Source: Alphaproteobacteria bacterium (lineage in GTDB: Bacteria > Pseudomonadota > Alphaproteobacteria > Ferrovibrionales > Ferrovibrionaceae). Taken from it: a stretch of DNA of 64,000 bases. Where the stretch lies: assembly GCA_017307375.1 (NCBI GenBank), contig JAFKFH010000006.1:124001-188000 (forward strand). Reading direction: 5' to 3'. The notes beneath the pieces are model-generated. The model did not search any database. It saw nothing but the letters and a program-made list of their open reading frames with translations, and was not told the origin of the DNA. The translations under genes and the position numbers were made by a program. This document shows, in pieces, positions 1,066 through 37,091 of the stretch (positions are counted from its first letter, which is position 1; each line of letters opens with the position of its first letter).

Positions 1066-1081
1066 AAACAAATACTTGTTT
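1066..1081. promoter_or_regulatory. inverted repeat between divergent genes, possible operator
   Basis: AAACAA-ATAC-TTGTTT has perfect 6-bp arms and lies in the 133-bp gap between the class II aldolase and the PhyH oxygenase. Its position suits a repressor site acting on both promoters. No regulator is encoded next to it, so the assignment is inference. Confidence 0.35.
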
Positions 1082-1135
1082 GGTAAATGGAGCGGCCTAG
1101 ACTGGCCGCCGAGATTTCCATGGGAGGAAATGCCG

Positions 1136-2705: not shown

Positions 2706-2711
2706 TGATTT

Positions 2712-2733
2712 TTAGTCAAATGATTAATTAATC
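2712..2733. promoter_or_regulatory. AT-rich palindromes upstream of the acyl-CoA dehydrogenase pair
   Basis: This AT-rich patch in otherwise GC-rich DNA holds an imperfect repeat (TTAGTCA-AA-TGATTAA) and a perfect 12-bp palindrome GATTAATTAATC at 2722-2733. It lies 50-70 bases before the first dehydrogenase. It probably marks the promoter/operator of that pair; no cognate regulator is identified. Confidence 0.3.
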
Positions 2734-2783
2734 TTGCGGCCGAGGGTTGCGAAGCGCAGACTTGGAAAAAAGGGAGGATCGCG

Positions 2784-3869: not shown

Positions 3870-3881
3870 GGGAGGCTCGAG

Positions 3882-5114: not shown

Positions 5115-5741
5115 TCAGGGGCGGCGGGTCAGGGTTTCCAGCGCCCGCTTGAAGAACTCGCGCCGCGATTCCTTGTCGAAGACCAGCAGCGGCGCGACAT
5201 TGACCGACAGCAGGATGCGGGCACGCACCTCGGCCTCGCCGGCCTCGAAACCCAGGTCGCGGAAGGCCTGCGCCAGGAACGGCAGCACCAGGCTCTCCGA
5301 TTCGCTGACCGTGGCCGCGGCGCGGGGGTCCATCGTCGCCCAGATGCGCATGGCGTGGTCGAGCTCGAAGGTACGTTCCTGCAGCGACAGCTTGGCCAGG
5401 CGCTGGATGCGGGTGATCGGGTCGGGGTTGCCGACCATCGTCTGCTCCAGGACCCGCCGCACCCGGTCGGCCGAGAAATGCCGGGCAACGGCGCCGAGGT
5501 AATCCTCGAAATCGCTGAAATGGTGATAGAAGCTGCCGGTCGAGACGCCCAGTCGCGCCGTCAGTGCCGAAAGCTTGACCCCGGCGATACCCTGTTCGCG
5601 CAGGATGTCCTGGCCGGCCTCGATCCAGTCGACGCCGCTCAGCCGGCGATCGGCCGGCACCCGCTCGGCGGTCTTGGCCGTTTTCTTCGACGTGCTGGCG
5701 GCGCGGGCCGACTGGCGCCTGACTGTGCTTCGCAACGACAT
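5115..5741 (-). CDS. TetR family transcriptional regulator (probable local regulon repressor)
   Basis: The 208-residue protein has a lysine/arginine-rich N-terminal arm and then a TetR helix-turn-helix near residues 40-85 (AGVKLSALTARLGVSTGSFYHHFSDF, shown by its core LTARLGVSTGSFYHHF). A helical C-terminal ligand domain follows. It is divergent from the ABC operon and separated from it by a 189-bp region holding one copy of a 19-bp palindrome. The same palindrome occurs three more times in the next 16 kb, upstream of related catabolic genes. The simplest reading is that this protein represses itself and that regulon and is released by a pathway intermediate, often an acyl-CoA in such systems. 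Ligand and binding are inferred. Confidence 0.88.
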   Translation of the reverse strand: MSLRSTVRRQSARAASTSKKTAKTAERVPADRRLSGVDWIEAGQDILREQGIAGVKLSALTARLGVSTGSFYHHFSDFEDYLGAVARHFSADRVRRVLEQTMVGNPDPITRIQRLAKLSLQERTFELDHAMRIWATMDPRAAATVSESESLVLPFLAQAFRDLGFEAGEAEVRARILLSVNVAPLLVFDKESRREFFKRALETLTRRP

Positions 5742-5822: not shown

Positions 5823-5841
5823 ATAACATAATATATGTTAT
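5823..5841. promoter_or_regulatory. ATAACAT palindrome, copy 1 (regulon operator)
   Basis: ATAACAT-AATAT-ATGTTAT has perfect 7-bp arms. It lies in the divergent region between the TetR gene (82 bases away) and the ABC operon (90 bases away). It is one of four copies of the same 19-bp motif in the window. Confidence 0.75.
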
Positions 5842-5930
5842 TGAAATGATGATTTGCCGGTCAGCCTAATGCGGGCCGGACGAGACGCCGGAAAACACGG
5901 TGCCGAAGAATCAGCTTGGGAGAGGAAACC

Positions 5931-7151
5931 ATGAACGACGACCACAGCGGCATCAGCCGCCGACGGCTGCTGCGCCACGCGGCTGCGGGATCGCTCCTGC
6001 TGCCGATGCCCTTCATCGCCCGCCGCGGCCTGGCCGACGAGGTGTTCCGCGTCGGCTGGATCCGGCCGACCACCGGCCGTCTCGCCTCGTCGTTCGCGCC
6101 GCTTTATGCCGGCGGGCTGATCGCGATCGACGAGATCAACGCCGCCGGCGGCATTCTCGGGCGCAAAGTCGTGATCCAGGAAGAGGATGACGAGGCCTCG
6201 CCGGCCAAGCAGCCGGCGGTGATCAAGCGGCTGAAGGATGCCGGCGTCTCCTACGTCGTCGGCCCGACCGGCTCGCCGCAGGTGCTGTCCTCGCTGGCCT
6301 TCACGACCCCGGCGCAGATGATCCAGTGCGGCATCGCCAATGCCGCCGACCAGGGCGACGCGGTCAAGTATCCCTACAACTACATGTGCGTCTGGTCGAC
6401 CGAGCAGGAGGGCGAGGCGGCCGCCGCCTACATGGCCAGCCAGCTCAAGATCCGCAAGATCGGCCTGCTGCAGGAATCGACGGCGTTCGGCGAACAGGCC
6501 GGCAATGCGACCCGGCGCAAGTTCAAGGAACTCACCGGCCAGGATCCGGCCTCGGTCCAGGTCTATCCGGCGACCGCGACCGACCTCGCCCCCTATGTGA
6601 AGAACCTGCAGGCGGCGGGCTGCGAAGGCGTGATCGTCTGGATGGCCAACACCGTGCATATCGGCATGGCCTTCAACGCGATGGCCCAGCAGAAATGGCT
6701 GCCGCCGGTCATCGGCCACGTCAACCTGTTCAACGACTCGCTGTTCGACCTGGTGCCGCTCGACGCGCTGAAGAACGTCTATGGCGTCTACTATCGGAAC
6801 TGGACCTATACCGACAAGGAACAGGTGCCGCAGCGCAACCAGGAACTGGCCAGGAAGCTTGCGGCGGTCGACCAGGCCAAGGGCATCAATGCCTTCATCG
6901 CCGGTTGCCCGCATTACGACTTCCTCTATCTGCTCAAGGCCGCGGTCGAGCAGGCCAAGTCGACCGAGGTGGCCGCGGTCAAGAAGGCACTGGACGGGGT
7001 GCGCGGCTACAAGGCCGTCCTGGGCACGATCAATTTCAGCGAGACCAGCCATGCCGGCATCGGCATGGAGGACGTGACCCTGGCCAGCGTCGCGTCGGCC
7101 AAGGATCCGCGTTCGTTCGGTGCCCTGCGCGAGCGTGCGCCGGGAGCCTGA
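5931..7151 (+). CDS. branched-chain-amino-acid-type ABC transporter substrate-binding protein
   Basis: The 406-residue periplasmic protein begins with a Tat-type leader (SRRRLLRHAAAGSLLLPMPF) and continues with a type I periplasmic binding fold: FRVGWIRPTTGRLAS, then DEINAAGGILGRKVVIQEEDDE and a KRLKDAGVSYVVGPTGS segment. It belongs to the LivK/HAAT family, which in soil bacteria also binds aromatic and other carboxylates. GAGAGGAAA precedes the chosen ATG. It heads an operon with permease, fused permease-ATPase, second ATPase and an acyl-CoA ligase, so the ligand is probably a carboxylic acid that is CoA-activated on entry. Confidence 0.9.
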   Translation: MNDDHSGISRRRLLRHAAAGSLLLPMPFIARRGLADEVFRVGWIRPTTGRLASSFAPLYAGGLIAIDEINAAGGILGRKVVIQEEDDEASPAKQPAVIKRLKDAGVSYVVGPTGSPQVLSSLAFTTPAQMIQCGIANAADQGDAVKYPYNYMCVWSTEQEGEAAAAYMASQLKIRKIGLLQESTAFGEQAGNATRRKFKELTGQDPASVQVYPATATDLAPYVKNLQAAGCEGVIVWMANTVHIGMAFNAMAQQKWLPPVIGHVNLFNDSLFDLVPLDALKNVYGVYYRNWTYTDKEQVPQRNQELARKLAAVDQAKGINAFIAGCPHYDFLYLLKAAVEQAKSTEVAAVKKALDGVRGYKAVLGTINFSETSHAGIGMEDVTLASVASAKDPRSFGALRERAPGA

Positions 7152-7175
7152 CACTCCTTACCGGGGAGGTAGCCG

Positions 7176-8048
7176 TTGTACCTCGATGTGCTGGTTCAGG
7201 CCCTGACCGCGGGCAGCATCTATGCCCTGGTCGGGGTCAGCGTGAACGTGATCTACCGCCCGACCAATACGTTCAATCTGGCCCAGGGCAACCTGGTGAT
7301 GCTCGGCGCGATCCTCTGCGCGACGATCCTGGGGCAGCTCAAGCTGCCCTGGTATCTCGCCGCCGGGATCACGGTCGTCGTCATCTCCGGGATCGCCTGG
7401 CTGACGCATCTGGTCGCGGTCGCGCCGATCCTGTCGCGGCCGGGCGGTGGCGGGCATGGCTGGCTGGTCTCTACGCTCGCCGTCGGCATCCTGATCGAGG
7501 ATGCGGTCGGCAAGATCGTCGGGCCGGACCCGCAGCGACTGCCGCCGCCGCCACCGCTGTCGACCGAGCTCGGCGCGCTGGGCGTATCCTCCTACCAGGT
7601 CGCGCTGGTCGCAGGCGTCGTCGCGATCGTCGCGGCCCTGGAAATCTTCTACCGCTCGCGGACCGGCCGCGCGATCCTCGCCATTGCCGAGGATCGCGAC
7701 GCCAGCCTGCTCTGGGGCATCGATCCGACCCGGCTGGCGCGGATGTCGTTCGTGCTGTCCGGTGTCGTCGCGGCGCTTGCCGGCATCCTCGCCGGGCCGG
7801 TGTTCTACGCGTCGGTCGGCCTGGGCGGTTCGCTGCTGATCAAGGGGTTCGAGGCTGCGGCGGCGGGCGGGATCGGCAGCAATCGCGGCGTGATCCTGGC
7901 TGGATTCTTCATCGCCCTGCTCGATGCGATCACCGCGCGGGCACTGGCGCCCGGCTACCAGGATGCGGTGAGCTTCGTTGCCGTCCTGCTGCTGCTGCTC
8001 GTCCGGCCGCAGGGGCTGATGGGGCGTACCAATCTGAGGACGGTGTGA
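7176..8048 (+). CDS. livH: ABC transporter permease, LivH type
   Basis: This 290-residue membrane protein has about eight hydrophobic segments and the LivH pattern: LTAGSIYALVGVSVNVIYR and TNTFNLAQGNLVMLGA at the N-terminus, and a cytoplasmic EAA-like loop around the RAILAIAEDRDAS segment near residue 170. The start is a TTG codon, supported by GGGGAGG 7 bases upstream and the expected N-terminal alignment. It would form half of the channel with the LivM domain of the next gene, which follows after one base. Confidence 0.9.
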   Translation: MYLDVLVQALTAGSIYALVGVSVNVIYRPTNTFNLAQGNLVMLGAILCATILGQLKLPWYLAAGITVVVISGIAWLTHLVAVAPILSRPGGGGHGWLVSTLAVGILIEDAVGKIVGPDPQRLPPPPPLSTELGALGVSSYQVALVAGVVAIVAALEIFYRSRTGRAILAIAEDRDASLLWGIDPTRLARMSFVLSGVVAALAGILAGPVFYASVGLGGSLLIKGFEAAAAGGIGSNRGVILAGFFIALLDAITARALAPGYQDAVSFVAVLLLLLVRPQGLMGRTNLRTV

Positions 8049-8049
8049 C

Positions 8050-9807
8050 ATGCGCTGGATGATCGCCGTCACCGCGGTCGCCGCGCTGCTGCCGTTCGGT
8101 CTGTCCGGCGAATACGCGCTGCTGGTCGCGACCCAGCTGTGGGTGTTCTATATGGTGGTGGTCGGTCTCAACCTGCTGACCGGCTATGGCGGGCAGACCT
8201 CGATCGGTCACGGCGCGCTGGTCGCGGTCGGCGCCTATGTCGCCGCGATCGGCATGGTCGACTACAAGCTGTCGTTCTGGCTGGCCCTGCCGCTGGCCAT
8301 GCTCGGTACCGGCGCCGCCGGCGCCTTGATGGCCTTGCCGACCTTCCGGCTGTCGACCTGGTACTTCGCGCTGATCACGCTGGGTTTCGCGCGGGTGATT
8401 TCCGGCCTGCTGGTCGAGCTGGAGCCGATCACCCACGGCTTCAGCGGCGTGATCGGCGTGCCGATGCCGCGTGTCGGGGGGTACGAGTTTTCCGGCCGCG
8501 CCTTCTACTGGCTGGTCCTGGCGCTGGCCTTTCTCGCCTATCTCGTCACCTCGAACCTGATCGGTTCGCGCTACGGCCGGGCGCTAATGGCGCTGCGCGA
8601 CAATCCGCTGGCCGGGATCGGCGCGGGCATCTCGCTCGGTCGGCTGAAGATCATGGCCTTCGTCTACTCGGCGGCGCTGGCCGGGGCGGGCGGGGCGATG
8701 TTTGCGGTCCAGAAGACGGTGATCACGCCGGAGGATTTCACCACCGACCTGTCGATCTTCTTCCTGCTGGTCGTCGTGCTCGGCGGGCTCGGCCGCAGGC
8801 ACGGCCCGCTGATCGGGGCGCTGGCCTTCTTCCTGCTGCCCGAACTGCTGACCGACCTGCAGAAATGGCGGATGCTGATCTATGGTGCCGGCCTGCTGCT
8901 GCTGACCATCTATGCTCCCGACGGTATCGCCGGGGCGCTGGAAGGCTGGTTCGGCCGGTTTCGCCCTCGCAAGGCCGCGGCGTCGGCGCCGGTCTCGGCG
9001 TTGCCGCAGTTGGCCGGCGCCGAGCTTGCGGTGGCCGCGGTCACCAAGACCTTCGGCGGCGTCACCGCAGTCGCCGATCTCAGCCTGCAGGTACCGGCCG
9101 GTACCGTGCATGCCGTGGTCGGGCCGAACGGGTCGGGCAAGACCACGCTGCTGAACCTGATCACCGGCTTCTATCCGGTCGACGGCGGTCGCATCCTGGT
9201 CGCCGGGACCGACGTCGTCGGCCGCGGCGCCACCGCGATCGCCCGCGGCGGTGTCCGCCGCACCTTCCAGACGCCCAAGCTGATCCCCGGGCTTTCGGTG
9301 ATCGAGAACGTGATGCTCGGCGCCTTCACCGCCGAAACCGCCAGTCTGGCGGAAGTCGCGCTGAACCTGCCGCGTGCCCGGCGCGAGGCGGCCGAGCGGC
9401 GGGCCGAGGCGATGTCCTATCTGCGCTTCGTCGGGCTCGACGTGCGGGCCGACGACCCGGCGGGCGACATCCCGCATGGCCAGCAGCGGCTGATCGAAAT
9501 CGCGCGCGCGCTGGTCGGACGGCCCAGCCTGCTGTTGCTCGACGAACCCGCGGCGGGGCTGTCGCTGGCCGAACTGGACGGGCTCTGCGCACTGATCAAG
9601 GCGATCGCCGCTCTCGGCACCACGGTCGTCATCGTCGAACATCACCTCGATCTCGTGGCCAGCCTGGCCCAGTCGGTCACGGTGCTTGATCGCGGCCACC
9701 TGCTCGCCGCCGGCACGCCCGAGGCGGTGTTCCGCGATCCCGGCGTCATCGCGGCTTACATGGGCGCCCGGGCGCTGAGCGGAACGGAGGCCAGCCATGC
9801 TGCTTGA
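8050..9807 (+). CDS. LivM-LivG fusion: ABC permease joined to ATPase
   Basis: One 585-residue chain holds a LivM permease (about residues 1-300, with LNLLTGYGGQTSIGHGALV and about eight membrane segments). A short alanine-rich linker near 305-320 joins it to a LivG ATPase (about 323-575). The ATPase has Walker A GPNGSGKTT, the signature IPHGQQRLIEIARAL and Walker B LLLLDEPAAGLS followed by the switch histidine in EHHLD. LivM and LivG are usually separate genes, as in the second operon at 58-60 kb. Its last bases overlap the start of livF. Confidence 0.92.
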   Translation: MRWMIAVTAVAALLPFGLSGEYALLVATQLWVFYMVVVGLNLLTGYGGQTSIGHGALVAVGAYVAAIGMVDYKLSFWLALPLAMLGTGAAGALMALPTFRLSTWYFALITLGFARVISGLLVELEPITHGFSGVIGVPMPRVGGYEFSGRAFYWLVLALAFLAYLVTSNLIGSRYGRALMALRDNPLAGIGAGISLGRLKIMAFVYSAALAGAGGAMFAVQKTVITPEDFTTDLSIFFLLVVVLGGLGRRHGPLIGALAFFLLPELLTDLQKWRMLIYGAGLLLLTIYAPDGIAGALEGWFGRFRPRKAAASAPVSALPQLAGAELAVAAVTKTFGGVTAVADLSLQVPAGTVHAVVGPNGSGKTTLLNLITGFYPVDGGRILVAGTDVVGRGATAIARGGVRRTFQTPKLIPGLSVIENVMLGAFTAETASLAEVALNLPRARREAAERRAEAMSYLRFVGLDVRADDPAGDIPHGQQRLIEIARALVGRPSLLLLDEPAAGLSLAELDGLCALIKAIAALGTTVVIVEHHLDLVASLAQSVTVLDRGHLLAAGTPEAVFRDPGVIAAYMGARALSGTEASHAA

Positions 9808-10504
9808 GGTCGACGGGCTGGTCTCGGGCTATGGCAAGGTCGCGATCCTCGACCGCGTGGCACTGACCGTGGCGCCCGGCGAGCTTGTCGCCATCGTCGG
9901 CGGCAACGGCGCGGGCAAGAGCACGCTGCTGCGGACGATTTCCGGCCTGCTGCCGGTGATGGCGGGCACGATCCGCTGGGAAGGGCGCGACGTCACCCGC
10001 GCCAGCCCCCGGACGATGCTGGCCTTCGGCCTGCTGCACATCGCCGAGGGGCGGCGGCTGTTTCGCCAGCAATCGGTGCAGAGCAATCTCGACCTCGCCT
10101 TCTACGGTGCCGGGCTGTCGCGCGAGGAGGAACGGCGGCGGATCGACGATGCCTTCGCGCGCTTTCCCATTCTGCACGAGAAGCGCGGCGAACCGGCCGG
10201 GGCGCTGTCGGGCGGCCAGCAGCAGATCCTGACCGTGGCGCAGGCCTGGCTGCGGCGGCCGCGGCTGCTGATGCTCGACGAACCCTCGCTCGGCCTGGCG
10301 CCGGTCATCGTCGACCAGGTGCTCGACCTGGTGCTGCGGCTGCGATCCGAGGGATGCGCGATCATCCTGGTCGAACAGTTGGTCGAGCGGGCGATGGAAA
10401 TCGCCGATACCGCCTATGTGATGCAGAACGGTCGGATCATGGGCTCGGGCCCCGCCCGCGAGATGATCGGCAGCGAACTGCTCCAGCATGCCTATCTCGC
10501 CTGA
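9797..10504 (+). CDS. livF: ABC transporter ATP-binding protein, LivF type
   Basis: The 235-residue ATPase has Walker A GGNGAGKST, the LivF-typical HIAEGRRLFRQQSVQSNLDL segment, the signature LSGGQQQILTVAQAW (usually ending IARAL) and Walker B LLMLDEPSLGL. It starts inside the end of the LivM-LivG gene (11-base overlap), so its translation is coupled. It is the second ATPase of the HAAT-type importer. Confidence 0.92.
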   Translation: MLLEVDGLVSGYGKVAILDRVALTVAPGELVAIVGGNGAGKSTLLRTISGLLPVMAGTIRWEGRDVTRASPRTMLAFGLLHIAEGRRLFRQQSVQSNLDLAFYGAGLSREEERRRIDDAFARFPILHEKRGEPAGALSGGQQQILTVAQAWLRRPRLLMLDEPSLGLAPVIVDQVLDLVLRLRSEGCAIILVEQLVERAMEIADTAYVMQNGRIMGSGPAREMIGSELLQHAYLA

Positions 10505-10516
10505 AGGGAGGAACGG

Positions 10517-12046
<1,530 letters not shown>

Positions 12047-12067
12047 GACGATGCGTTGCCCCTTAAG

Positions 12068-12086
12068 ATAACATAGATTATGTTAT
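12068..12086. promoter_or_regulatory. ATAACAT palindrome, copy 2 (regulon operator)
   Basis: ATAACAT-AGATT-ATGTTAT is identical in both 7-bp arms to copy 1. It lies 29 bases before the HpaB-type monooxygenase gene, so that operon would start a new transcription unit under the same regulator. Confidence 0.75.
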
Positions 12087-12114
12087 GTAAATCGAAGATC
12101 TGGTGGAGGAAGCC

Positions 12115-13524
12115 ATGGCCCTGAAGACCCCTGAGGAATACGTCGCCAGCCTGCGCGACGGCCGCGTCACCTACTGGGACGGCGAGCGCATCGACGACAT
12201 CACCACCCACCCGCGGTTTCAGGTGCCCATCGCCCTGACGGCGAAGGACTACGAATACGAGTCGCCGGAATACGGCGCGTTGCGCCGCTACGAGACCGAG
12301 GACGGTGCCGCGGCCCACCGCATCTACCAGATTCCGCGTGACGAGAAGGATCTGGCGACGCGGGTCGAGATGATGGCCCATACCTCGATCGGCACGCTGG
12401 TCGCGGGGGTCTACATGGCGCTGATGAGCGTCAAGGACCAGGTGGCGCAGGTCAATCCGCGATATGCGGAAAACATCGAGCGGATGTATCGCTATTGCCG
12501 CGACAACGACCTGCGTGCCGCCGAGGTGATCACCGATCCGAAGGGCGACCGCAAGCGCCGCGCCCACGAGCAGGACGACCCCGACCTCTATGTCCGCATC
12601 GTCGAGCGCAACGACAAGGGTATCGTCGTGCGTGGCGCCAAGCTGCATATCACCGCCGCCTCGCTGGTCCACGAACTGGTGGTCATGCCGACCAAGGGCA
12701 TGCGCCAGGACGAGACCGACTATGCCGTCTCGTTCTCGATCCCCGTCAACACCAAGGGCGTCACCATCATCAACCGCAGCTTCGCGCCGGCCGAGCTGAA
12801 CGCCTTCGACTATCCGGCGTCGTCGCATCATTCGATGCCGGAAGGCTTCGTCGTGTTCGACGACGTCTTCGTGCCCTGGGACCGCGTCTTCCTTGCCGGC
12901 GAGGTGCAGCTGGCCTCCAAGCTGGCGCAATCGCTTGGCCTGTGGGAGCGCACCGGCGGCGTGGTCGAGGCGGTGCGGATGTCGGAACTGTTCGTCGGCC
13001 TGGGGCAGCTCGTTTCCGAGATGCAGGGCAAGGACCAGGACCCGATGGTCCAGGCCTCGATCGCCGAACTGATCACCTATGCCGAGACGTTGCGCATGGG
13101 CCTCGATTATGCCTGCCGGCACTACGAGAAGACGCCGTCGGGCATGGTCTTTCCCAACATGCTCGCCATCAACGTCGCGAAGTACTACTACGCCGCCAAC
13201 TATCACCAGACGGTGCGCTACCTGCATGATCTCGGCGGCGGCCTCGTCCTGACGCTGCCGCTGGAGAGCGACCTGCGCAATCCGGAATCGGGCAAGTACA
13301 TCCGCAAGTACCTGCACACGAAGAAGGATGTCGACGTCGAGCAGCGCATGCGCGTCTACAACCTGATCCGCGACCTGACGGCCGATGCCTATGGCGGCTG
13401 GCAGTTCGTGGTGGCATTGCAGGCCGGCGGCGGGCTGCCGGCGCAGCGCATCATGATGAACCGTACCTACGACCTCGCCCGCGCGCGCAAGCGGGCGCTG
13501 GCGGCGGCGGGCGCGAAGGTCTGA
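12115..13524 (+). CDS. 4-hydroxyphenylacetate 3-monooxygenase (HpaB) family flavin-dependent oxygenase
   Basis: The 469-residue protein has the HpaB family layout: an N-terminal TPEEYVASLRDGR and YWDGERID region, the AAEVITDPKGDR segment, the THxT-like AHTSIG region and the VVFDDVFVPWDRVFLAGE motif near residue 250. The family is an acyl-CoA-dehydrogenase relative that hydroxylates phenolics using FADH2 from a separate reductase. The [4Fe-4S] cysteines of the related 4-hydroxybutyryl-CoA dehydratase are absent, favouring an oxygenase. GGAGGA lies 4 bases before the ATG at 12115. It is followed by a fused acyl-CoA dehydrogenase and a CoA ligase, so the substrate may be an acid or CoA ester rather than free phenol. 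Confidence 0.85.
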   Translation: MALKTPEEYVASLRDGRVTYWDGERIDDITTHPRFQVPIALTAKDYEYESPEYGALRRYETEDGAAAHRIYQIPRDEKDLATRVEMMAHTSIGTLVAGVYMALMSVKDQVAQVNPRYAENIERMYRYCRDNDLRAAEVITDPKGDRKRRAHEQDDPDLYVRIVERNDKGIVVRGAKLHITAASLVHELVVMPTKGMRQDETDYAVSFSIPVNTKGVTIINRSFAPAELNAFDYPASSHHSMPEGFVVFDDVFVPWDRVFLAGEVQLASKLAQSLGLWERTGGVVEAVRMSELFVGLGQLVSEMQGKDQDPMVQASIAELITYAETLRMGLDYACRHYEKTPSGMVFPNMLAINVAKYYYAANYHQTVRYLHDLGGGLVLTLPLESDLRNPESGKYIRKYLHTKKDVDVEQRMRVYNLIRDLTADAYGGWQFVVALQAGGGLPAQRIMMNRTYDLARARKRALAAAGAKV

Positions 13525-13528
13525 ACCG

Positions 13529-15712
13529 ATGACGGCGGCTGCGATGACGGACGACGATTTCCGCGCCGAGGTACGCGACTTCCTCAGGCACCATCTGCCG
13601 GCGGACATGGCCGCCCGCAATCGCACCGCCGTTCATCCGACCCGCGAGGACACGCTGGGATGGCAGGCTATCCTGGCCCGCCGCGGCTGGTCGGTGCCGT
13701 CCTGGCCGGCCGAGCATGGCGGGCCCGGCTGGACGCCGTTGCAGCGCTACATCTTCGAGGAGGAGCAGGCGCTGGCCGGCGCGCCGGCCAACAACATCCA
13801 GGGCGTGTCGCTGGTCGGACCGGTGATCTACACCTTCGGCAACGCCGCCCAGCGGGCGCGTCACCTGCCCGGGATCATCGAAGGCAAGGTCTTCTGGTCG
13901 CAGGGTTTCTCCGAGCCCAATGCCGGTTCCGACCTGGCGTCGCTGCGGACCCGCGCGGTGCGCGACGGCGATCACTATATCGTCACCGGCCAGAAGATCT
14001 GGACATCGCAGTCGATGATGGCCGACTGGATCTTCTGCCTGGTGCGGACCAACCCGTCGGCCAAGCCCCAGCGCGGCATTTCGTTCCTGCTGGTGCCGGC
14101 CGACGCGCCCGGCATCACCATCCGGCCGATCCGCTCGATCGACGAAGGCGAAAGCCTCTGCGAAGTCTTCTTCGACGCTGTCCGGGTCGCCGCCGAGAAC
14201 CTGATCGGCGAGGAGGGCAGGGGCTGGGACTACGCCAAGTTCCTGCTGGGGCTGGAGCGCGCGACCACGGCCGAGGTGCCGCGCAACAAGCGTTATCTGG
14301 CGACGCTCAAGGAGATCCTGGGGTCAGCCGACGATGCCTGGCGCCGTCGGGTCGCCAGGATCGAGGTCGACCTGCGGACGCTCGAGGCCGGGGCGCTGCG
14401 GGCGATCGGGGCCGACCAGGACGACATGCTGCTGCCGTCGGCACTCAAGCTGCATGGCTGCGACCTGATGCAGACCACCCTGAAGGCGCAGGTCGAGGCG
14501 CTGGGGCCGCACGGGCTTGCCTACTGGCCGCAAGGCCACGACGACGCGCCCGTGCCGCCGGTGGCCGCGCATGGCCGCGATGTCGCGGCGGAATTCCTGT
14601 TTCGCCGCGCGGCCACCATCTACGGCGGATCGAGCGAGGTGCAGAAGAACATCATCGCCAAGGTCTTCGTCGACGGCGACATGCCGGCAAAGGGCCTGGC
14701 GACCGACGAGCAGCGGATGATGCAGGATTCGGTCGCCCGCTTCGTCGCGCGCGATTATGCCTTCGATGCGCGGCGCCGGATGCCCGCGGGGGGCACCCGG
14801 GCGATGTGGCGGCAATTCGCCGAACTCGGCTGGCTCGGCGCCGGGCTGCCCGAGGAGACCGGCGGGTTCGGCGGCGGCATTGCCGATGCGGCCGTGATCG
14901 CCGAGGGCCTGGGCCGCGCGCTGGTCCTGGAACCCTATGTCGGCTGCGCGGTGATGCCCGGCCGTGCCCTGGCCGCGGCCGGCGGCCAGCAGGCACTGCT
15001 TGCCGTCCTGGCTTCCGGCGAGACGATCTTCGCCTTCGCCCACGATGGCGACGTGCGTGCCGACCGCGATCTCGTCCTCACCGGCCGCAAGGTCGTGGTG
15101 ATGGGCGGTGCGATGGCCGACCGGTTCCTCGTCTCGGCCTACACGGCCGAAGGGCCGACCCTGTTCCTGGTCGACCGCGGCACCCCGGGTCTCGCGGTCC
15201 TGCCGTACCGGACGCTCGATGCCCGCATGGTCGCCGATATCGAGCTTGCCGGGGTCCAGCCGGCCGCGGTGATCGGCCGGGTCGGCGATGCCGGGCCGGC
15301 GATCGAGGCGGCGGTCGCCGATGGCCTCCTGGCGCTCTGTGCCGAATCCTACGGCGCGATGGATCAGGCGATGCGGATCACCCGCGACTACCTGCGTCTG
15401 CGCCAGCAGTTCGGTGCCCCCCTCAGCACCTTCCAGGCCCTGCGCCACCGCCTGGCCGAGATGTATGTCGCCGTCGATCTCTCGGGCGCTTTCCTCCGGC
15501 AGGCACTGGCTTCCGGCGACGTGGCGCTGGCCCCGTCGGTCAAGATCCGCTTCGGCCAAGCCGGCTTCTTCGTCGGCGCGCAGGCGGTACAGCTGCATGG
15601 CGGGATCGGCATGACCGAGGAATGCCAGGCCGGTCACTTCTTCAAGCGGCTTTGCGTCAACGACCTGCTTCTCGGCACGGCCGAGCAGCATGTCGGGCGG
15701 ATGGCGTCATGA
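13529..15712 (+). CDS. two-domain fused acyl-CoA dehydrogenase (FadE34-like)
   Basis: This 727-residue protein is two acyl-CoA dehydrogenase domains in tandem. Domain 1 (about 5-390) is the large type, with SQGFSEPNAGSDLASL, GQKIWTSQS and IYGGSSEVQKNIIAK. Domain 2 (about 395-725) is the short type, with LGWLGAGLPEETGGFGGG, a degenerate middle domain and LHGGIGMTEECQAGHFFKR. It corresponds to the separate pair at 2784-5102 joined in the opposite order, as in actinobacterial FadE34/ChsE3. It starts 4 bases after the monooxygenase gene and overlaps the following ligase as ATGA. The role is desaturation of a CoA ester; chain identity is unknown. Confidence 0.92.
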   Translation: MTAAAMTDDDFRAEVRDFLRHHLPADMAARNRTAVHPTREDTLGWQAILARRGWSVPSWPAEHGGPGWTPLQRYIFEEEQALAGAPANNIQGVSLVGPVIYTFGNAAQRARHLPGIIEGKVFWSQGFSEPNAGSDLASLRTRAVRDGDHYIVTGQKIWTSQSMMADWIFCLVRTNPSAKPQRGISFLLVPADAPGITIRPIRSIDEGESLCEVFFDAVRVAAENLIGEEGRGWDYAKFLLGLERATTAEVPRNKRYLATLKEILGSADDAWRRRVARIEVDLRTLEAGALRAIGADQDDMLLPSALKLHGCDLMQTTLKAQVEALGPHGLAYWPQGHDDAPVPPVAAHGRDVAAEFLFRRAATIYGGSSEVQKNIIAKVFVDGDMPAKGLATDEQRMMQDSVARFVARDYAFDARRRMPAGGTRAMWRQFAELGWLGAGLPEETGGFGGGIADAAVIAEGLGRALVLEPYVGCAVMPGRALAAAGGQQALLAVLASGETIFAFAHDGDVRADRDLVLTGRKVVVMGGAMADRFLVSAYTAEGPTLFLVDRGTPGLAVLPYRTLDARMVADIELAGVQPAAVIGRVGDAGPAIEAAVADGLLALCAESYGAMDQAMRITRDYLRLRQQFGAPLSTFQALRHRLAEMYVAVDLSGAFLRQALASGDVALAPSVKIRFGQAGFFVGAQAVQLHGGIGMTEECQAGHFFKRLCVNDLLLGTAEQHVGRMAS

Positions 15713-17220
15713 CCTTCGTCGATATCAGCACCCGCATCAGGCGGCATGCAGCCGACCGGCCGGACGACGAGGCCCTGGTCGTCGACAATGAGCGCATTCG
15801 CTGGTCGGCCTTCGATCGCCTCGTCAATCGCTGCGCCAATGCGCTGATCGGCCAGGGCGTGCAGCCGGGCGACCGGGTGGCCGTTCTCGCGCCGACCTCG
15901 GCGGCCTATCTCGTCGCCTTCCTCGGCATCCTGCGGGCCGGGGCCGTCGTCGTGCCGCTGTCGCCGATGGCGGGCAGCGAGGCGCTCGGCGCGATGGTCG
16001 CGGACAGCGGCGCGGTGGCCGTGTTCGCGGGGCAGGAGACGCGGACGTTGGCCGAGGCATGTGCCGCGACCGTCCGTTGCCGCATCGCCTTCGACTTTGC
16101 CGCCCCGGGCTGGCTCGACTATGCCGCGCTCGCAACCGACGACACGGCACCCGACGTCACGCTAACACCGGCGCTCGGCTTCAACCTGATCTATTCCTCC
16201 GGCACCACCGGGACACCGAAGGGCATCGTCCACGACCATGCCACGCGCACCGTCACGCTCGATGCCCTGGTCGGCCTGGGATTCGGGCCGGACTGCCGCA
16301 CGCTGGTCGCGACGCCGCTCTATTCCAACACCACCCTTGCCGCCTGGCTGCCGACGCTCGGCCTTGGCGGTACCGTCGTGCTGATGACCAAGTTCGACGC
16401 GCGGCGCTATCTGGAGCTGGCGCAGGGCGAGCGCATCACCCATTCGATCCTGGTGCCGGTGCAGTACCAGCGTATCCTGGCAGACCCCGAATTCGACCGC
16501 TTCGATCTCTCGGCCTTCCGTTTCAAGATGGTCACCTCGGCGCCGATCCGCGCGGCGGCCAAGCGCGAGATCGTCGAACGCTGGCCCGGTCCGCTGCTCG
16601 AGATGTATGGCCTGACCGAAGGGGGCGGCATCTGCACGCTGGATGTCGGTGCCAATCCCGACAAGCTCGATACCGTCGGCAAGCCGGCCTGGGGCTGCGA
16701 CGTCAGGATCATCGACGAACGCGGCGTCGAACTGCTGCGCGGTCAGGTCGGCGAAATCGTCGGGCGCGGGCCGGTGATGATGTCGGGCTACCACAACCAG
16801 CCCGACCGTACGGCCGAGATCATCTGGCGCAACCCCGACGGCGATGTCTTCTTCCGGTCGGGCGACCTCGGCTGGTTCGACGACGACGGCTTCCTGCACC
16901 TGTCCGACCGCAAGAAGGACATGATCATCTCCGGCGGCTTCAACATCTACGCCACCGACCTGGAAGTTGTGCTGGCCGCCCATCCGGCGGTACGCGACGT
17001 GGCCGTCATCGGCATTCCCAGCCGCGAGTGGGGCGAGACGCCGCTGGCGCTCGTCGTCCTGCGCGATGGCGCGTCGCCGACGGCCGAGGACTTGCGCGGC
17101 TGGGCCAACGAGCGGCTGGGCAAGGCCCAGCGCCTCGCAGCCGTCGAATTCCGCGAGGCGCTGCCGCGCAACGCGCTGGGCAAGATTCTGAAACGCGAGC
17201 TGCGCCAGCCTTATTGGTGA
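15709..17220 (+). CDS. AMP-dependent acyl-CoA ligase, second copy
   Basis: This 503-residue class I adenylate-forming ligase has A3 IYSSGTTGTPKGIVHDH (about residue 160), A5 MYGLTEGGG, A8 SGDLGWFDDDGFLHLSDRKKDMIISGGFNIY and the catalytic lysine in NALGKILKREL near the C-terminus. Its ATG overlaps the stop of the fused dehydrogenase (ATGA), marking it as the third gene of this operon. It differs clearly from the ligase at 10517, so two acids or two stages may be activated. The end overlaps the convergent MDR oxidoreductase by 10 bases. Confidence 0.92.
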   Translation: MTFVDISTRIRRHAADRPDDEALVVDNERIRWSAFDRLVNRCANALIGQGVQPGDRVAVLAPTSAAYLVAFLGILRAGAVVVPLSPMAGSEALGAMVADSGAVAVFAGQETRTLAEACAATVRCRIAFDFAAPGWLDYAALATDDTAPDVTLTPALGFNLIYSSGTTGTPKGIVHDHATRTVTLDALVGLGFGPDCRTLVATPLYSNTTLAAWLPTLGLGGTVVLMTKFDARRYLELAQGERITHSILVPVQYQRILADPEFDRFDLSAFRFKMVTSAPIRAAAKREIVERWPGPLLEMYGLTEGGGICTLDVGANPDKLDTVGKPAWGCDVRIIDERGVELLRGQVGEIVGRGPVMMSGYHNQPDRTAEIIWRNPDGDVFFRSGDLGWFDDDGFLHLSDRKKDMIISGGFNIYATDLEVVLAAHPAVRDVAVIGIPSREWGETPLALVVLRDGASPTAEDLRGWANERLGKAQRLAAVEFREALPRNALGKILKRELRQPYW

Positions 17221-18140
17221 AACACCGTCCGCCGCCTGCTGTCGTCGCGCGGCCAGGCCTGTTCGACCTCCGCCAGCGGTGCCGGCGTGAAGGCAATGTG
17301 CAGGCCGGCCGGAACGGCGGCCTGCAGCACCGCCCCGGCTGCCGCGACGAGGCGGTCGAACCGGATGCTGCCGATGCCGCTGCCCATCAGTTCGATGGCG
17401 GACGAACGCAGCACGCCGCTCGGCAGTGCGATGTCGGCCGCGCTGACCGAGCCGACCTGGACAAAGCGGATGGGTACGGCGTCGCGCCCGGCCCTGGCCC
17501 CGGCGATCAGCAGCGCGCGGGCGCTGTCGCCCCACAGATAGTCGATGACGACGTCGACGCCTTCCGCGAACGGCGCCAGGAAGGCTTCGGGCTGGTCGAG
17601 CGGTAGGGTGACATCGGCGCCGACCTCGCGCAGTGCCTGCGCATTGCGACCGGTGGCGATGATCCTGCCCGCGCCGAGATGTCGGGCGATCTGCACGGCG
17701 AGCCGACCTGAGGTACCCGTGGCGCCGTTGACGAGGACGGTCTCGCCCGGCTTCAGCCGCGCCCGTTCGACATAGGCGGCCCAGGACGACATGCCGGGAT
17801 TGGCGATCGCTGCGGCGGCAAGATCGTCGAGGTCGTCGGGCAGGTCGACGCACTGTGCCGCCGGTACCGCCACCCGCTCGGCCATCGCGCCATGGGGCGG
17901 CCTCGGCATGACAAAATAGACGCGTCGGCCGTCGCTGGTTCGCCCGACGCCGTCGATCCCGGCAACGAAGGGGAAGGCGTTGGTCGCGCTGTAATGTGCC
18001 CCGGACGCGCGGGCCTTCACCACCTGGCTGATTGCCGCGGCCGTGACGTCGATGAGAATTTCCCCCGCCGCCGGTACCGGCTCGGCGAAATCGGCGAAGA
18101 CCGGCACCTGGCCGGGACCCTGGACGACGGCGGCCTTCAT
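17211..18140 (-). CDS. MDR family zinc-type alcohol dehydrogenase / quinone oxidoreductase-like protein
   Basis: The 309-residue medium-chain dehydrogenase/reductase has an N-terminal GroES-like domain (MKAAVVQGPGQVPVF start) and a Rossmann NADP site LVNGATGTSGRLAVQIARHLGA near residue 140. The structural zinc cysteines are absent, as in quinone-oxidoreductase types. The ATG at 18140 follows a GAGGG site; longer upstream frames add only non-homologous sequence. It is divergent from a MarR gene that probably controls it through the inverted repeat between them. It is not preceded by the 19-bp regulon palindrome. Confidence 0.85.
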   Translation of the reverse strand: MKAAVVQGPGQVPVFADFAEPVPAAGEILIDVTAAAISQVVKARASGAHYSATNAFPFVAGIDGVGRTSDGRRVYFVMPRPPHGAMAERVAVPAAQCVDLPDDLDDLAAAAIANPGMSSWAAYVERARLKPGETVLVNGATGTSGRLAVQIARHLGAGRIIATGRNAQALREVGADVTLPLDQPEAFLAPFAEGVDVVIDYLWGDSARALLIAGARAGRDAVPIRFVQVGSVSAADIALPSGVLRSSAIELMGSGIGSIRFDRLVAAAGAVLQAAVPAGLHIAFTPAPLAEVEQAWPRDDSRRRTVFHQ

Positions 18141-18156
18141 GGCGCATCCCTCAATA

Positions 18157-18173
18157 ATGTGTATGATGCACAT
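18157..18173. promoter_or_regulatory. MarR-type operator candidate
   Basis: ATGTG-TATGATG-CACAT lies in the 49-bp gap between the divergent MDR oxidoreductase and MarR genes. Its size and placement fit a MarR dimer site. An ACATATGT palindrome inside the start of the MarR gene may be a second contact. Confidence 0.45.
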
Positions 18174-18189
18174 ATATCGGAGGTCCGGA

Positions 18190-18663
18190 ATGGCGTCAAA
18201 GAAGAAAGTGCAAAATACACATATGTCGCTGCGGCACCGGGCATTGCACGGCGCGTTGCTCGACATCGTCGGGGCGATGAACCGGCCCCAGCGCGATGCG
18301 ATGCTGATCGCGGCGGCGGGCATTCCGCTCGATCGGGCGCTGTTCCCGCTGCTGGTCGGGATCGAGCGCTTCGGCCCGATCGGCATCGTGGAGATGGCCG
18401 ACCGGGTGGGGCGCGACTACACGACGGTCAGTCGGCAGGTATCGAAACTGGAAAGCCTCGGGCTGGTCGTTCGCCGCGACGGGGCGGCCGATCGCCGGGT
18501 GCGCGAAGCCGTCGTCACGCCCGCGGGCAAGGCAATGACCGACCGGGTCGACGCGGCGCGCGAACGCATCTTCAGCGAGGTCTTCGCGGGTTGGGACGAC
18601 GAGGATGTCGAGACGCTGGTCCGGCTGATGCGGCGCCTCGCCGACGCGATGACCGGTCAGTAG
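18190..18663 (+). CDS. MarR family transcriptional regulator
   Basis: The 157-residue protein has a winged helix with VEMADRVGRDYTTVSRQVSKLESLGLVVRR (core GRDYTTVSRQVSKLE) and the wing DGAADRRVREAVVTPAGK. The ATG at 18190 follows GGAGG by 6 bases. Its place opposite the MDR oxidoreductase suggests that it regulates that gene and itself. The stop overlaps the convergent RibB-like gene by 7 bases. Confidence 0.88.
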   Translation: MASKKKVQNTHMSLRHRALHGALLDIVGAMNRPQRDAMLIAAAGIPLDRALFPLLVGIERFGPIGIVEMADRVGRDYTTVSRQVSKLESLGLVVRRDGAADRRVREAVVTPAGKAMTDRVDAARERIFSEVFAGWDDEDVETLVRLMRRLADAMTGQ

Positions 18664-19199
18664 ACCGCGATATCGTGGCGGAAGCCGAGTTCGCGGCAGT
18701 ACGCCGCCGTCGCCAGGTCGCCGTCCTCGCCGAGGATGTCGCACCAGGCCACCGCTTCGTGCGGCAGCATGGCGGCGGCGATCTCGGGCAGCGTGGTGCC
18801 GGCGGGGCGGCGGATCAATAGCGGCATGATATGGCCGGGCATCACCACGGCGCCGGCCCGCGCGTTCGGATCGGCCGCGGTGCGGATCGTCAGCGCCCGG
18901 TCGGCGGCCGAAATGCCGCTGCCCGGGCAGTCGGCGACCTCGATCGAGGCGAGATAGACCGGCGACCCGTCGTCAGGCAGCTGCGTGCCCGCCATCGGCT
19001 GGATACCCAGGCGGAAGGCCGCGGCGAGGTCCAACGTGACCGAGAGCAGGCCGCGGCCGAGGCTGGCCATGCGGTTGGCCTGTGTCTCGGTCAGGGTCGC
19101 GGCGCGCGCAGCGAAGATGCCGCGATCGCCGCCGGTGAGGATCGCCAGTTCCCCGGCGGGCAAGGCCGAAGTCTGGGCTTGTCTGAGGGCACGGGGCAT
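18657..19199 (-). CDS. RibB-like (3,4-dihydroxy-2-butanone-4-phosphate synthase fold) protein lacking the acidic metal loop
   Basis: The 180-residue sequence aligns with DHBP synthase over most of its length: SGISAADRALTIRTAADP (residues ~94-111) and MPGHIMPLLIRRPAG with H123 match the RibB TGxSAxDR and RPGHxFPL motifs. The catalytic DxxDRENEGD loop is replaced by ILTGGDRGIF (residues 20-29), removing the Mg-binding glutamates, and the later CE(L/I) motif reads WCDI. It is probably not a normal riboflavin enzyme. It lies 23 bases downstream of a solute-binding protein gene, in a region rich in flavin-dependent enzymes. GGGAGG precedes the ATG at 19199. Function unknown. Confidence 0.7.
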   Translation of the reverse strand: MPRALRQAQTSALPAGELAILTGGDRGIFAARAATLTETQANRMASLGRGLLSVTLDLAAAFRLGIQPMAGTQLPDDGSPVYLASIEVADCPGSGISAADRALTIRTAADPNARAGAVVMPGHIMPLLIRRPAGTTLPEIAAAMLPHEAVAWCDILGEDGDLATAAYCRELGFRHDIAVY

Positions 19200-19222
19200 G
19201 GCGATCCTCCCTTCTCGCTTGG

Positions 19223-20464
19223 CTACTGGGCCGCGACCATCGCGCAGGTCGCCGCGCTCATCGGACGGAACGCCTTCTCGGGCTCGACCGTCTCGACCGC
19301 CTGCACGTAGTCCCACTCGCCGGTCGACTGGCCGGGCTGCTTGACCTGGAACAGGTACATCCGGTTCATCAGGCGGCCGTTGGCCCGGATCGTCGCCGGA
19401 CCGAACAGCGGGTCCTCGACCTTCAGTTCCTTCATCTTGGCGACCACGGCGGCACCGTTGGCCTTGGCGGTTTCCTGGCCGACCGCCGCGGCGGCCTTCA
19501 GATAGTGCAGCGTTGCCGAATAGGTGCCGGCGACGTTCTGGCAGGGGCGGATGCCGTTGGTCAGCGGCATCATCCGCTCGGTGAATTTGCGCGCCGCATC
19601 GTTCTGCGCCCAGTAGAATGCGTTCGAATAGAACATGCCCTGCGAATCCTTCAGGCCGATCGCATGCACCGTCGGCACATCCATCAGCATCGCGGTCAGC
19701 ACCGACCCGTTCGAGGTGATGCGGAACTCGGCCGCCTGCTTGATGCAGGTGGCGAGATCGTCGCCGGCATTGGCAAAGCAGATCACCTTGGCGCCGGACG
19801 CCTGCGCCTGCAGCAGCAGGCTGGAGAAGTCGCCGGTCGACGGGAACGGGTGGCGGACCGAGCCCAGCACCTTGCCGCCGGCGGCGGTGATGATCGCAGT
19901 GGCGTCGCGTACGACCGACGCGCCCATCGCGTAGTCGGCCGCGATGAAGAACCAGGTGTCGAGCTTGCGGCGCAGCAGCGCCTCGGCCACCGTGGTCGCC
20001 ATCGCGTAGCTGTCATAGGTCCAGTGGACGTGGTTCGGACCGCAATATTTCGAGGTCAGGTCCTCGGTCGCGGTGCCGGAGAACAGGGCGACCTTGTTCT
20101 TCTCCTTGACCAGCGTCGACAGCCCCAGGGCCAGCGCCGACATCGGGATGTCGGCGACCGCGTCGACGCCTTCGGAATCGAACCATTTGCGCGAGATGGC
20201 GAGGCCGACATCGGGCTTCAGCTGGAAATCGGCATAGACCACCTCGGCCGGCAAGGTCGGGTTCATCGCCTTGAAATCCTCGACCGCAAGCCGGGCGGCG
20301 GATACTGCGCTGATGCCCGACAGGGTCGCGTAGGGGCCGTTCATGTCGGCCAGCACCGCGACCCGGATCGGCGTCGCGGCCCGGGCCGGCCGGATGAACG
20401 GCATGGCCAGCGGGCTCAGGGCGCCGGCGGCGGCCGTGGCAGCAAGAAGCTTGCGGCGGTTCAT
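19223..20464 (-). CDS. branched-chain-amino-acid-type ABC substrate-binding protein, second copy
   Basis: The 413-residue type I periplasmic binding protein has a signal NRRKLLAATAAAGALSPLAM with a twin-arginine, cut near the ARAATPIR region. The body shows VAVLADMNGPYATLSG and a KWFDSEGVDAVADIP segment. GAGAGGAAA precedes the ATG. No permease or ATPase lies beside it, yet a copy of the regulon palindrome sits upstream. It may feed the LivH/LivMG/LivF system at 7.2-10.5 kb with a second ligand. Confidence 0.9.
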   Translation of the reverse strand: MNRRKLLAATAAAGALSPLAMPFIRPARAATPIRVAVLADMNGPYATLSGISAVSAARLAVEDFKAMNPTLPAEVVYADFQLKPDVGLAISRKWFDSEGVDAVADIPMSALALGLSTLVKEKNKVALFSGTATEDLTSKYCGPNHVHWTYDSYAMATTVAEALLRRKLDTWFFIAADYAMGASVVRDATAIITAAGGKVLGSVRHPFPSTGDFSSLLLQAQASGAKVICFANAGDDLATCIKQAAEFRITSNGSVLTAMLMDVPTVHAIGLKDSQGMFYSNAFYWAQNDAARKFTERMMPLTNGIRPCQNVAGTYSATLHYLKAAAAVGQETAKANGAAVVAKMKELKVEDPLFGPATIRANGRLMNRMYLFQVKQPGQSTGEWDYVQAVETVEPEKAFRPMSAATCAMVAAQ

Positions 20465-20532
20465 GGTTTCCTCTCCTCTGGACGGCGGCCCTGGTTGTCG
20501 CCCGGCCCCCGGCCGCCTGGGGGCGAGGATTG

Positions 20533-20551
20533 GTAACATAAATTATGTTAT
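20533..20551. promoter_or_regulatory. ATAACAT palindrome, copy 3 (regulon operator)
   Basis: GTAACAT-AAATT-ATGTTAT differs from the other copies by one outer base. It lies 69 bases before the second binding-protein gene and overlaps the TAA stop of the FMN reductase gene, so one site may serve the downstream pair as a separate promoter. Confidence 0.7.
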
Positions 20552-21126
20552 TGAAGTGTCCGGCCGGCTAGGCGCCAGCCGGCGAACGAAACCACCTGTT
20601 CGGCGACGATCCGCAACTGGTTGAGCACGGCCGGGCTGGTGGCGCCGCCGCTGCCGTCGAACTTGGTTTCGGTCGCGTTGATGCCGGCGCCCATCGGCGT
20701 CGGCCAGCCGCGCAGCGCGTGGGCGATCGAGCGCAGCGCGACCAGCGTCGTGCCCGCGGCCTGCCAGCCATAGGCGCAGGCGATGCAGCCGATCGCCCGG
20801 CCGTCGAGATAGGGCGTCTCGTCGCGCGCCAGGTCCTCTACGTAGTCCAGGGCATTCTTGAGCAGACCGGAAACCGTGCCGTGATAGGCGGGTGAGGCGA
20901 GAATGACGCCATCGCAGGCGCGTAGCGCCCCGACCAGGCGGTCGGCCTCCGGCGAGCGTTCGGCCCCGACGCCATAGAGCGGCAGGACCAGTGCGTCGCC
21001 GGTGAAGGCTTCGGTCCGTGCCCCCAGGCTTTCGGCAAAGCCCATGCAGGTGCGCAGCGCCATTTCGGTCGACGAGCCGGCACGCGGCGTGCCGCCGATA
21101 CCCACGATGAGAGGTTGCCTGGCCAT
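20548..21126 (-). CDS. NADPH-dependent FMN reductase (flavodoxin fold)
   Basis: The 192-residue protein has the flavodoxin-like phosphate loop GGTPRAGSSTEMAL and the FMN/dimer motif SPAYHGTVSGLLKNALDYVEDL of the SsuE/EmoB-type reductases. The ATG at 21126 is preferred over 21132 because GGAGGG sits 7 bases before it and directly abuts the other. It is divergent from an LLM monooxygenase, with one palindrome between. The likely role is supplying FMNH2 to that enzyme and perhaps reduced flavin to the HpaB-type oxygenase. Confidence 0.88.
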   Translation of the reverse strand: MARQPLIVGIGGTPRAGSSTEMALRTCMGFAESLGARTEAFTGDALVLPLYGVGAERSPEADRLVGALRACDGVILASPAYHGTVSGLLKNALDYVEDLARDETPYLDGRAIGCIACAYGWQAAGTTLVALRSIAHALRGWPTPMGAGINATETKFDGSGGATSPAVLNQLRIVAEQVVSFAGWRLAGRTLQ

Positions 21127-21159
21127 CGTCATCCCTCCGCCTTGCCGCCATCGACCGTA

Positions 21160-21182
21160 CAATAACATAATATATGTTATTG
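21160..21182. promoter_or_regulatory. ATAACAT palindrome, copy 4 (regulon operator, extended arms)
   Basis: This is the most extended copy: CAATAACAT-AATAT-ATGTTATTG, with perfect 9-bp arms. It lies between the divergent FMN reductase (34 bases away) and the LLM monooxygenase (97 bases away), so it could control both halves of a two-component oxygenase. Confidence 0.78.
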
Positions 21183-34280: not shown

Positions 34281-34372
34281 CTGAAGCGTTCCCCCGCTTG
34301 ATTGCGCGGCGCACTCTACACGAAGCCCCACGCCCGTGGCACGACGGCGCGCACCGGTCTAGGATCGTTGGC

Positions 34373-37039: not shown

Positions 37040-37050
37040 CCTCGACCTAT

Positions 37051-37063
37051 TTATCGGTGATAA
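37051..37063. promoter_or_regulatory. tet operator-like site 1
   Basis: TTATC-GGT-GATAA lies 12 bases before the TetA-type pump gene. It matches the TATCANTGATA core of the classical tet operator except at one position. Confidence 0.75.
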
Positions 37064-37069
37064 ATTAAC

Positions 37070-37082
37070 TTATCAATGATAA
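37070..37082. promoter_or_regulatory. tet operator-like site 2
   Basis: TTATC-AAT-GATAA contains an exact TATCANTGATA core. It lies 9 bases before the TetR ATG and 19 bases centre-to-centre from site 1. Tandem sites between divergent pump and repressor reproduce the known tetA/tetR arrangement. Confidence 0.8.
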
Positions 37083-37091
37083 AGAAGCGAC

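What the first reader, a model, noticed from the sequence alone, without database searches (positions are those of the whole stretch)
5823..21182. Four copies of one 19-bp palindrome define a catabolic regulon
ATAACAT-N5-ATGTTAT occurs at 5823, 12068, 20533 (one outer mismatch) and 21160 (extended to 9-bp arms), always between or just before transcription units and never inside a gene core. The units are a TetR gene and HAAT-type importer with CoA ligase, an HpaB-type oxygenase with fused dehydrogenase and ligase, a second binding protein with a RibB-like protein, and an FMN reductase with an LLM monooxygenase. One regulator, most simply the TetR protein at 5115, would switch on uptake, CoA activation, beta-oxidation and two flavin oxygenases together. 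The substrate of such a set is not recognisable, so this may be an undescribed degradation route.
Basis: partly seen in the sequence, partly recalled or inferred. Interest (0 to 1): 0.78.

Follow-up and report, generated by a model that had tools for sequence, protein, structure and literature searches.

The report
TetR-controlled local catabolic regulon
Four copies of one DNA palindrome mark the likely binding sites of a TetR-family repressor that controls a local set of uptake, CoA-activation and flavin-oxygenase genes for an unidentified carbon source; the same regulator, site and core genes recur together in several other alphaproteobacteria.

Summary
The four palindromes are real. In the whole 7.54-Mb genome the motif with at most one mismatch occurs only at these four places. 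The TetR protein at 5115-5741 is very probably the cognate regulator. In Bradyrhizobium, Chelatococcus, Camelimonas and two groups of unnamed relatives, its orthologue sits near an HpaB orthologue (79-86% identical) and a matching site precedes one or both genes. All 12 HpaB loci with this TetR carry a site; none of 14 without it does. The MarR gene inside the cluster has a different, unique palindrome.

The 19-mer can be read as two copies of a simpler operator, CATAAC-N4-GTTATG, overlapped with a 5-bp shift; distant TetR relatives carry the single copy. This suggests two dimers on opposite DNA faces, as for QacR or CprB.

The oxygenase is not a standard HpaB: it lacks two of three 4-HPA catalytic residues and the dehydratase's Fe-S ligands. 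The substrate is unknown.

Verdict: a well-supported local TetR regulon of a known kind, serving a possibly undescribed pathway. All evidence is comparative; no binding or expression experiment was possible.

The parts
5115..5741 (-). TetR-family regulator, proposed cognate repressor of the regulon
   Evidence: TetR_N, 32.4 bits vs cut-off 24; predicted TetR fold, pLDDT 81.7; co-occurs with the site in relatives
5823..5841 (.). Operator 1, between TetR (-) and the importer operon (+)
   Evidence: exact motif
5931..7151 (+). Substrate-binding protein 1 of a HAAT-type importer
   Evidence: Peripla_BP_6
7176..8048 (+). Importer permease
   Evidence: BPD_transp_2
8050..9807 (+). Importer permease fused to ATPase
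   Evidence: BPD_transp_2 + ABC_tran + BCA_ABC_TP_C
9797..10504 (+). Importer second ATPase
   Evidence: ABC_tran
10517..12046 (+). Acyl-CoA ligase 1
   Evidence: AMP-binding; 60-61% identical copies beside HpaB in Camelimonas
12068..12086 (.). Operator 2, upstream of the HpaB operon
   Evidence: exact motif
12103..13524 (+). HpaB-fold flavin-dependent enzyme of an unassigned clade (likely start ATG 12115)
   Evidence: HpaB_N and HpaB domains; key residues differ from HpaB and AbfD; 79-86% identical orthologues with the TetR
13529..15712 (+). Fused double acyl-CoA dehydrogenase (PimC-like + PimD-like halves)
   Evidence: Pfam and NCBIfam
15709..17220 (+). Acyl-CoA ligase 2
   Evidence: AMP-binding, NCBIfam ligases
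18657..19202 (-). RibB-like protein, downstream of binding protein 2
   Evidence: DHBP_synthase, 74 bits
19223..20464 (-). Substrate-binding protein 2
   Evidence: Peripla_BP_6; 63-68% identical copies behind a site in relatives
20533..20551 (.). Operator 3, upstream of binding protein 2, one mismatch
20548..21132 (-). FMN reductase
   Evidence: FMN_red; 58-60% identical copies between the site and HpaB in relatives
21162..21180 (.). Operator 4, between FMN reductase (-) and LLM monooxygenase (+)
   Evidence: exact motif; lies within promoter-like matches
21282..22610 (+). NtaA/DmoA-family FMN-dependent (LLM) monooxygenase
   Evidence: TIGR03860, 567 bits vs cut-off 279.7
18157..18173 (.). Separate palindrome of the MarR/zinc-dehydrogenase pair (ATGTGTATGATGCACAT); not part of the TetR regulon
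   Evidence: only exact match in the genome

Best explanation
A TetR-family repressor (5115-5741) binds four operators and silences its own gene, an importer-ligase operon, an oxygenase-dehydrogenase-ligase operon, a second binding protein with a RibB-like gene, and a divergent FMN reductase/LLM monooxygenase pair. When the substrate or its CoA thioester binds the repressor, it leaves the DNA and the cell takes up, CoA-activates and oxidises the substrate. Shown here: the sites, their uniqueness in the genome, and their co-occurrence with this TetR and with HpaB in relatives. Inferred: physical binding, repression rather than activation, and the nature of the ligand. Also inferred: each 19-bp site is two 16-bp operators (CATAAC-N4-GTTATG) overlapped with a 5-bp shift and occupied by two dimers on opposite DNA faces.
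For: Only four sites with 0-1 mismatch in 7.54 Mb, all within 15.4 kb. A TetR only 38% identical has an exact site just upstream. Bradyrhizobium, Chelatococcus and Camelimonas loci carry TetR, FMN reductase, HpaB, double dehydrogenase, ligase and binding protein with sites at TetR and before a binding-protein gene. Site present in 12 of 12 HpaB loci with the TetR and 0 of 14 without, counting 12/14 letters for the long motif or 11/12 for the short one. Recognition-helix segment GSFYHHF is invariant in 19 aligned TetR proteins. Operator 4 fills the 16-bp spacer of TTGACA-16-TATTGT. Single and double operator forms separate cleanly by score. The MarR has its own palindrome.
Against: No experimental binding or expression data. 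The 26 loci are not independent, several are short contigs, and three of those without TetR are only 43-47% HpaB homologues. Promoter calls are weak: 3 found against 1.6 expected. Distant TetR relatives with the short operator lack HpaB nearby, so shared specificity does not prove a shared ligand. The short and long motifs overlap in letters, so the double-dimer reading is not independent evidence of stoichiometry.
Confidence: 0.82

Rival explanations
1. The sites belong to another regulator, most simply the MarR protein at 18190-18663 inside the cluster, and the TetR is a bystander.
For: A MarR gene lies between sites 2 and 3, and MarR proteins also use palindromes of this size.
Against: The MarR/dehydrogenase intergenic region has its own palindrome, exact only once in the genome. 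MarR gave no match in the relatives that keep TetR and the site. Sites track TetR, even at 38% identity.
Confidence: 0.06
2. TetR is an activator, or a mixed regulator, rather than a repressor.
For: Site positions relative to start codons vary, and promoters are not mapped for sites 1-3.
Against: Most characterised TetR proteins repress (general knowledge); operator 4 fills the promoter spacer, and operator 1 lies between divergent genes including TetR itself.
Confidence: 0.1
3. The pathway is a known aromatic route of the 4-hydroxyphenylacetate or chlorophenol type under local TetR control, so nothing metabolic is new.
For: HpaB-fold protein with an FMN reductase; TtHpaB is among the closest solved structures.
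Against: Arg100 and His142 of TtHpaB are Ala101 and Glu141 here, and Glu141 is invariant in 18 relatives. NCBIfam HpaB models score far below cut-off: 226 vs 480 bits for HpaB-1 and 140 vs 885 for HpaB-2.
Confidence: 0.12
4. The 19-bp site binds a single TetR dimer, and the short form in distant relatives is a different specificity.
For: DesT and SimR bind 17-bp sites as single dimers (PMC4150764).
Against: Long sites score 8-11 of 12 in both 5-bp-shifted registers, short sites only 3-6 at the shifted ones apart from L061; recognition-helix residues are the same.
Confidence: 0.35

Closest known systems
TetR-family regulators of lipid and steroid catabolism (KstR, KstR2)
   Same: Local or pathway-wide control of CoA-dependent catabolic genes from palindromic operators; both appear among the structural matches of the predicted TetR.
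   Different: Low sequence identity (13-23%), different operator, and the ligand is unknown here.
QacR and CprB (dimer-of-dimers TetR proteins)
   Same: The operator fits two dimers on opposite faces; CprB uses 22 bp, QacR 28 bp (PMC4150764).
   Different: Stoichiometry is not measured here, and relatives of this TetR seem to use a single short operator.
RolR (resorcinol regulator, 3aqs/3aqt; identity of these entries from memory)
   Same: Best sequence match among solved structures, E = 6.5e-6.
   Different: A match of this strength may reflect only the DNA-binding domain; the gene set differs.
HpaB / 4-hydroxybutyryl-CoA dehydratase (AbfD) superfamily
   Same: Full-length HpaB_N and HpaB domains; TDPKGDR and QDDPDL segments shared with AbfD-type proteins.
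   Different: Lacks two of three 4-HPA catalytic residues and the Cys/His residues at the AbfD Fe-S ligand positions.
PimC/PimD pimeloyl-CoA dehydrogenase
   Same: The two halves of 13529-15712 match PimC (347 bits) and PimD (265 bits) models best.
   Different: Both are well below the curated cut-offs (624 and 653), and the two subunits are fused.

Membership tests
TetR family of transcriptional regulators | N-terminal TetR helix-turn-helix domain and all-helical TetR fold | tested here: met
   TetR_N above cut-off; predicted fold matches TetR structures
TetR family of transcriptional regulators | Binds the palindrome as operator | not testable with these tools
   Only comparative support
Dimer-of-dimers TetR proteins (QacR/CprB type) | Two dimers per operator | not testable with these tools
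   Sequence registers only
4-HPA 3-hydroxylase (HpaB) | Arg100-Tyr104-His142 triad | tested here: not met
   Ala101, Tyr104, Glu141 at these positions
4-hydroxybutyryl-CoA dehydratase (AbfD) | Fe-S cluster ligands, three Cys and one His | tested here: not met
   Cys/His of 6vjr at 97, 101, 289 and 295 align with L, G, E and V (that these are the ligands is from general knowledge)
NtaA/DmoA-family FMN-dependent monooxygenases | Above curated cut-off over full length | tested here: met
   TIGR03860, 567.1 vs 279.7 bits
Pimeloyl-CoA dehydrogenase PimC/PimD | Above curated equivalog cut-off | tested here: not met
   347 vs 624 and 265 vs 653 bits

The most novel reading that the evidence does not exclude
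The regulon encodes an undescribed degradation route in which an HpaB-fold enzyme of a new clade, lacking both the phenol-hydroxylase residues and the dehydratase Fe-S ligands, carries out a new flavin-dependent reaction, perhaps on a CoA thioester; and its TetR operator exists in single-dimer and half-turn-overlapped double forms among relatives.
Probability: 0.4. Interest if true: 0.55.

Novelty: new member of a known kind. Interest (0 to 1): 0.4.

Why it matters
It gives a concrete regulator, operator and gene list for a pathway that occurs in several alphaproteobacteria but has no known substrate, so a reporter or a TetR-deletion strain could reveal that substrate directly. The single and double operator forms in related TetR proteins could show how a dimer-of-dimers site arises from half-sites at a 5-bp shift. 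The oxygenase points to an uncharacterised branch of the HpaB/AbfD fold.

Tried and rejected
MarR as the cognate regulator: rejected, it has its own unique palindrome. HpaB-fold protein as a 4-hydroxybutyryl-CoA dehydratase or as a 4-HPA hydroxylase: rejected on residues. Plasmid search for HpaB gave only matches below 60% identity. Literature searches for this gene set and operator found nothing relevant; a search for the dehydratase ligands found nothing usable. A TetR search in the order of G021 gave no match. A TetR search in 385 class genomes, meant as an out-of-sample test, returned only genomes already seen. The HpaB-fold model is only moderate (pLDDT 70.7, C-terminus under 50), so no fold search was run on it.

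Full report
Observation. The motif ATAACAT-N5-ATGTTAT is present four times, at 5823, 12068, 20533 (one mismatch) and 21162. Shuffled versions of the window gave 0.16 matches on average with up to three mismatches. In the complete 7.54-Mb assembly these four are the only places with zero or one mismatch; two more have two mismatches and the remaining places have three.

Gene content. Around the sites lie a TetR protein, a HAAT-type importer with a permease-ATPase fusion, an acyl-CoA ligase, an HpaB-fold protein, a double acyl-CoA dehydrogenase (PimC-like and PimD-like halves), a second ligase, a zinc-type dehydrogenase divergent from a MarR protein, a RibB-like protein, a second binding protein, an FMN reductase and an NtaA/DmoA-family monooxygenase.

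Which regulator. The TetR homologue in genome G108 is only 38% identical, yet an exact copy of the motif stands just upstream of its gene. One scan of named genomes gave orthologues in a Bradyrhizobium MAG (67%), Chelatococcus reniformis, Camelimonas lactis and Camelimonas fluminis (57-58%), and more distant ones in Caulobacter and Sphingomonas. In the first four loci the TetR gene sits beside FMN reductase, HpaB (79-85%), the double dehydrogenase, a ligase and the second binding protein; a site lies between TetR and FMN reductase, and another lies before a binding-protein gene. HpaB orthologues from the order of G083 split cleanly: loci with the TetR have a site, loci without it do not. Taking 12 of 14 letters for the long form or 11 of 12 for the short form, 12 of 12 loci with the TetR carry a site and 0 of 14 without it do. 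These loci come from about six TetR-bearing lineages and include short contigs, so the counts are not independent. The MarR gene has its own palindrome, ATGTGTATGATGCACAT, exact only once in the genome, and MarR gave no match in the orthologous loci.

Operator anatomy. Upstream of HpaB in L048, L101 and L103, and at the Caulobacter and Sphingomonas TetR loci, stands CATAAC-N4-GTTATG with 11 or 12 of 12 letters. In 728 kb of loci about 0.4 hits at 11 or better are expected by chance. The 19-bp motif can be read as two copies of this operator shifted by 5 bp: every double site scores 8-11 in both registers, while single sites drop to 3-6 at the shifted registers, except L061 with 9 on one side. 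A 5-bp shift is half a helical turn, so two dimers on opposite faces is the natural reading, as in CprB and QacR (PMC4150764). This is inference, not measurement. The recognition-helix segment GSFYHHF is invariant in 19 aligned proteins, while more distant homologues with TKGSFYWHF carry a different palindrome.

Mode of action. Operator 4 fills the 16-bp spacer of TTGACA-16-TATTGT on the strand of the FMN reductase gene, the best promoter-like match in the region. That placement fits occlusion of RNA polymerase, hence repression. The promoter scan as a whole is weak evidence, with three matches against 1.6 expected. The predicted TetR fold has good confidence, with KstR, KstR2 and FasR among its structural matches. 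A CoA thioester or acid ligand is therefore plausible but untested.

Metabolism. The HpaB-fold protein has Ala101 and Glu141 where 4-HPA hydroxylases have Arg100 and His142 (residue roles from PMC10537072; mapping). It also lacks the Cys/His residues found at the Fe-S ligand positions of a vinylacetyl-CoA isomerase of the AbfD type. Glu141 and the TD-x-KGDR segment are invariant in 18 relatives, 44-86% identical to it. It is therefore a separate clade of this fold with unknown reaction. Neighbourhoods in relatives suggest that the pathway extends beyond the operator-bearing units. L081 has HpaB next to homologues (53-57%) of the window's acyl-CoA dehydrogenases at 2784-5102. L107-L110 and L113 have a dienelactone hydrolase next to HpaB that is 53-55% identical to the one at 33543-34331 in the window. 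Literature searches found no described pathway.

Conclusion. This is a real, local, TetR-controlled catabolic regulon, supported by comparative evidence and not by experiment. As regulation it is a new member of a known kind. The substrate and the reaction of the HpaB-fold enzyme are the open and more interesting part.

Noticed in passing
window 18157-18173 and 18206-18222: The MarR/zinc-type dehydrogenase pair has its own palindrome, ATGTGTATGATGCACAT, exact only once in the genome, plus a weaker copy 49 bp further on: a second, separate regulator nested in the cluster.
   Followed up: partly
window 33543-34331: A dienelactone hydrolase gene without a site is 53-55% identical to the one directly next to HpaB in L107-L110 and L113, so it may belong to the same pathway.
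   Followed up: partly
window 1076-5102: PhyH, HpcH/HpaI and two acyl-CoA dehydrogenase genes lie next to TetR without a palindrome; homologues of both dehydrogenases neighbour a 65% HpaB homologue in L081.
   Followed up: partly
window 18657-19202; L059 2471-3019: Flavin-biosynthesis-like genes recur near these flavin enzymes: a RibB-like protein here and a lumazine synthase (RibH) beside the double dehydrogenase in Camelimonas. The RibB-like protein seems to lack the usual acidic metal motif near its N-terminus (read from the sequence, not tested).
   Followed up: no
L021, L023, L024 upstream of TetR homologues: Related TetR proteins with recognition helix TKGSFYWHF carry a different palindrome of the type TCCATACG-N4-CGTATGGA, a possible specificity code within this TetR group.
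   Followed up: no
L048, L101-L106, L079: In relatives in the order of G083, HpaB with the TetR is found near a ketoacyl-synthase-like protein, a carboxyltransferase, an MFS transporter and a different CoA ligase rather than the HAAT importer set, so the pathway context varies.
   Followed up: no
window 35861-37739: An MFS transporter gene divergent from a second TetR gene with a TetR_C_1 domain, arranged like a drug-efflux pair.
   Followed up: no
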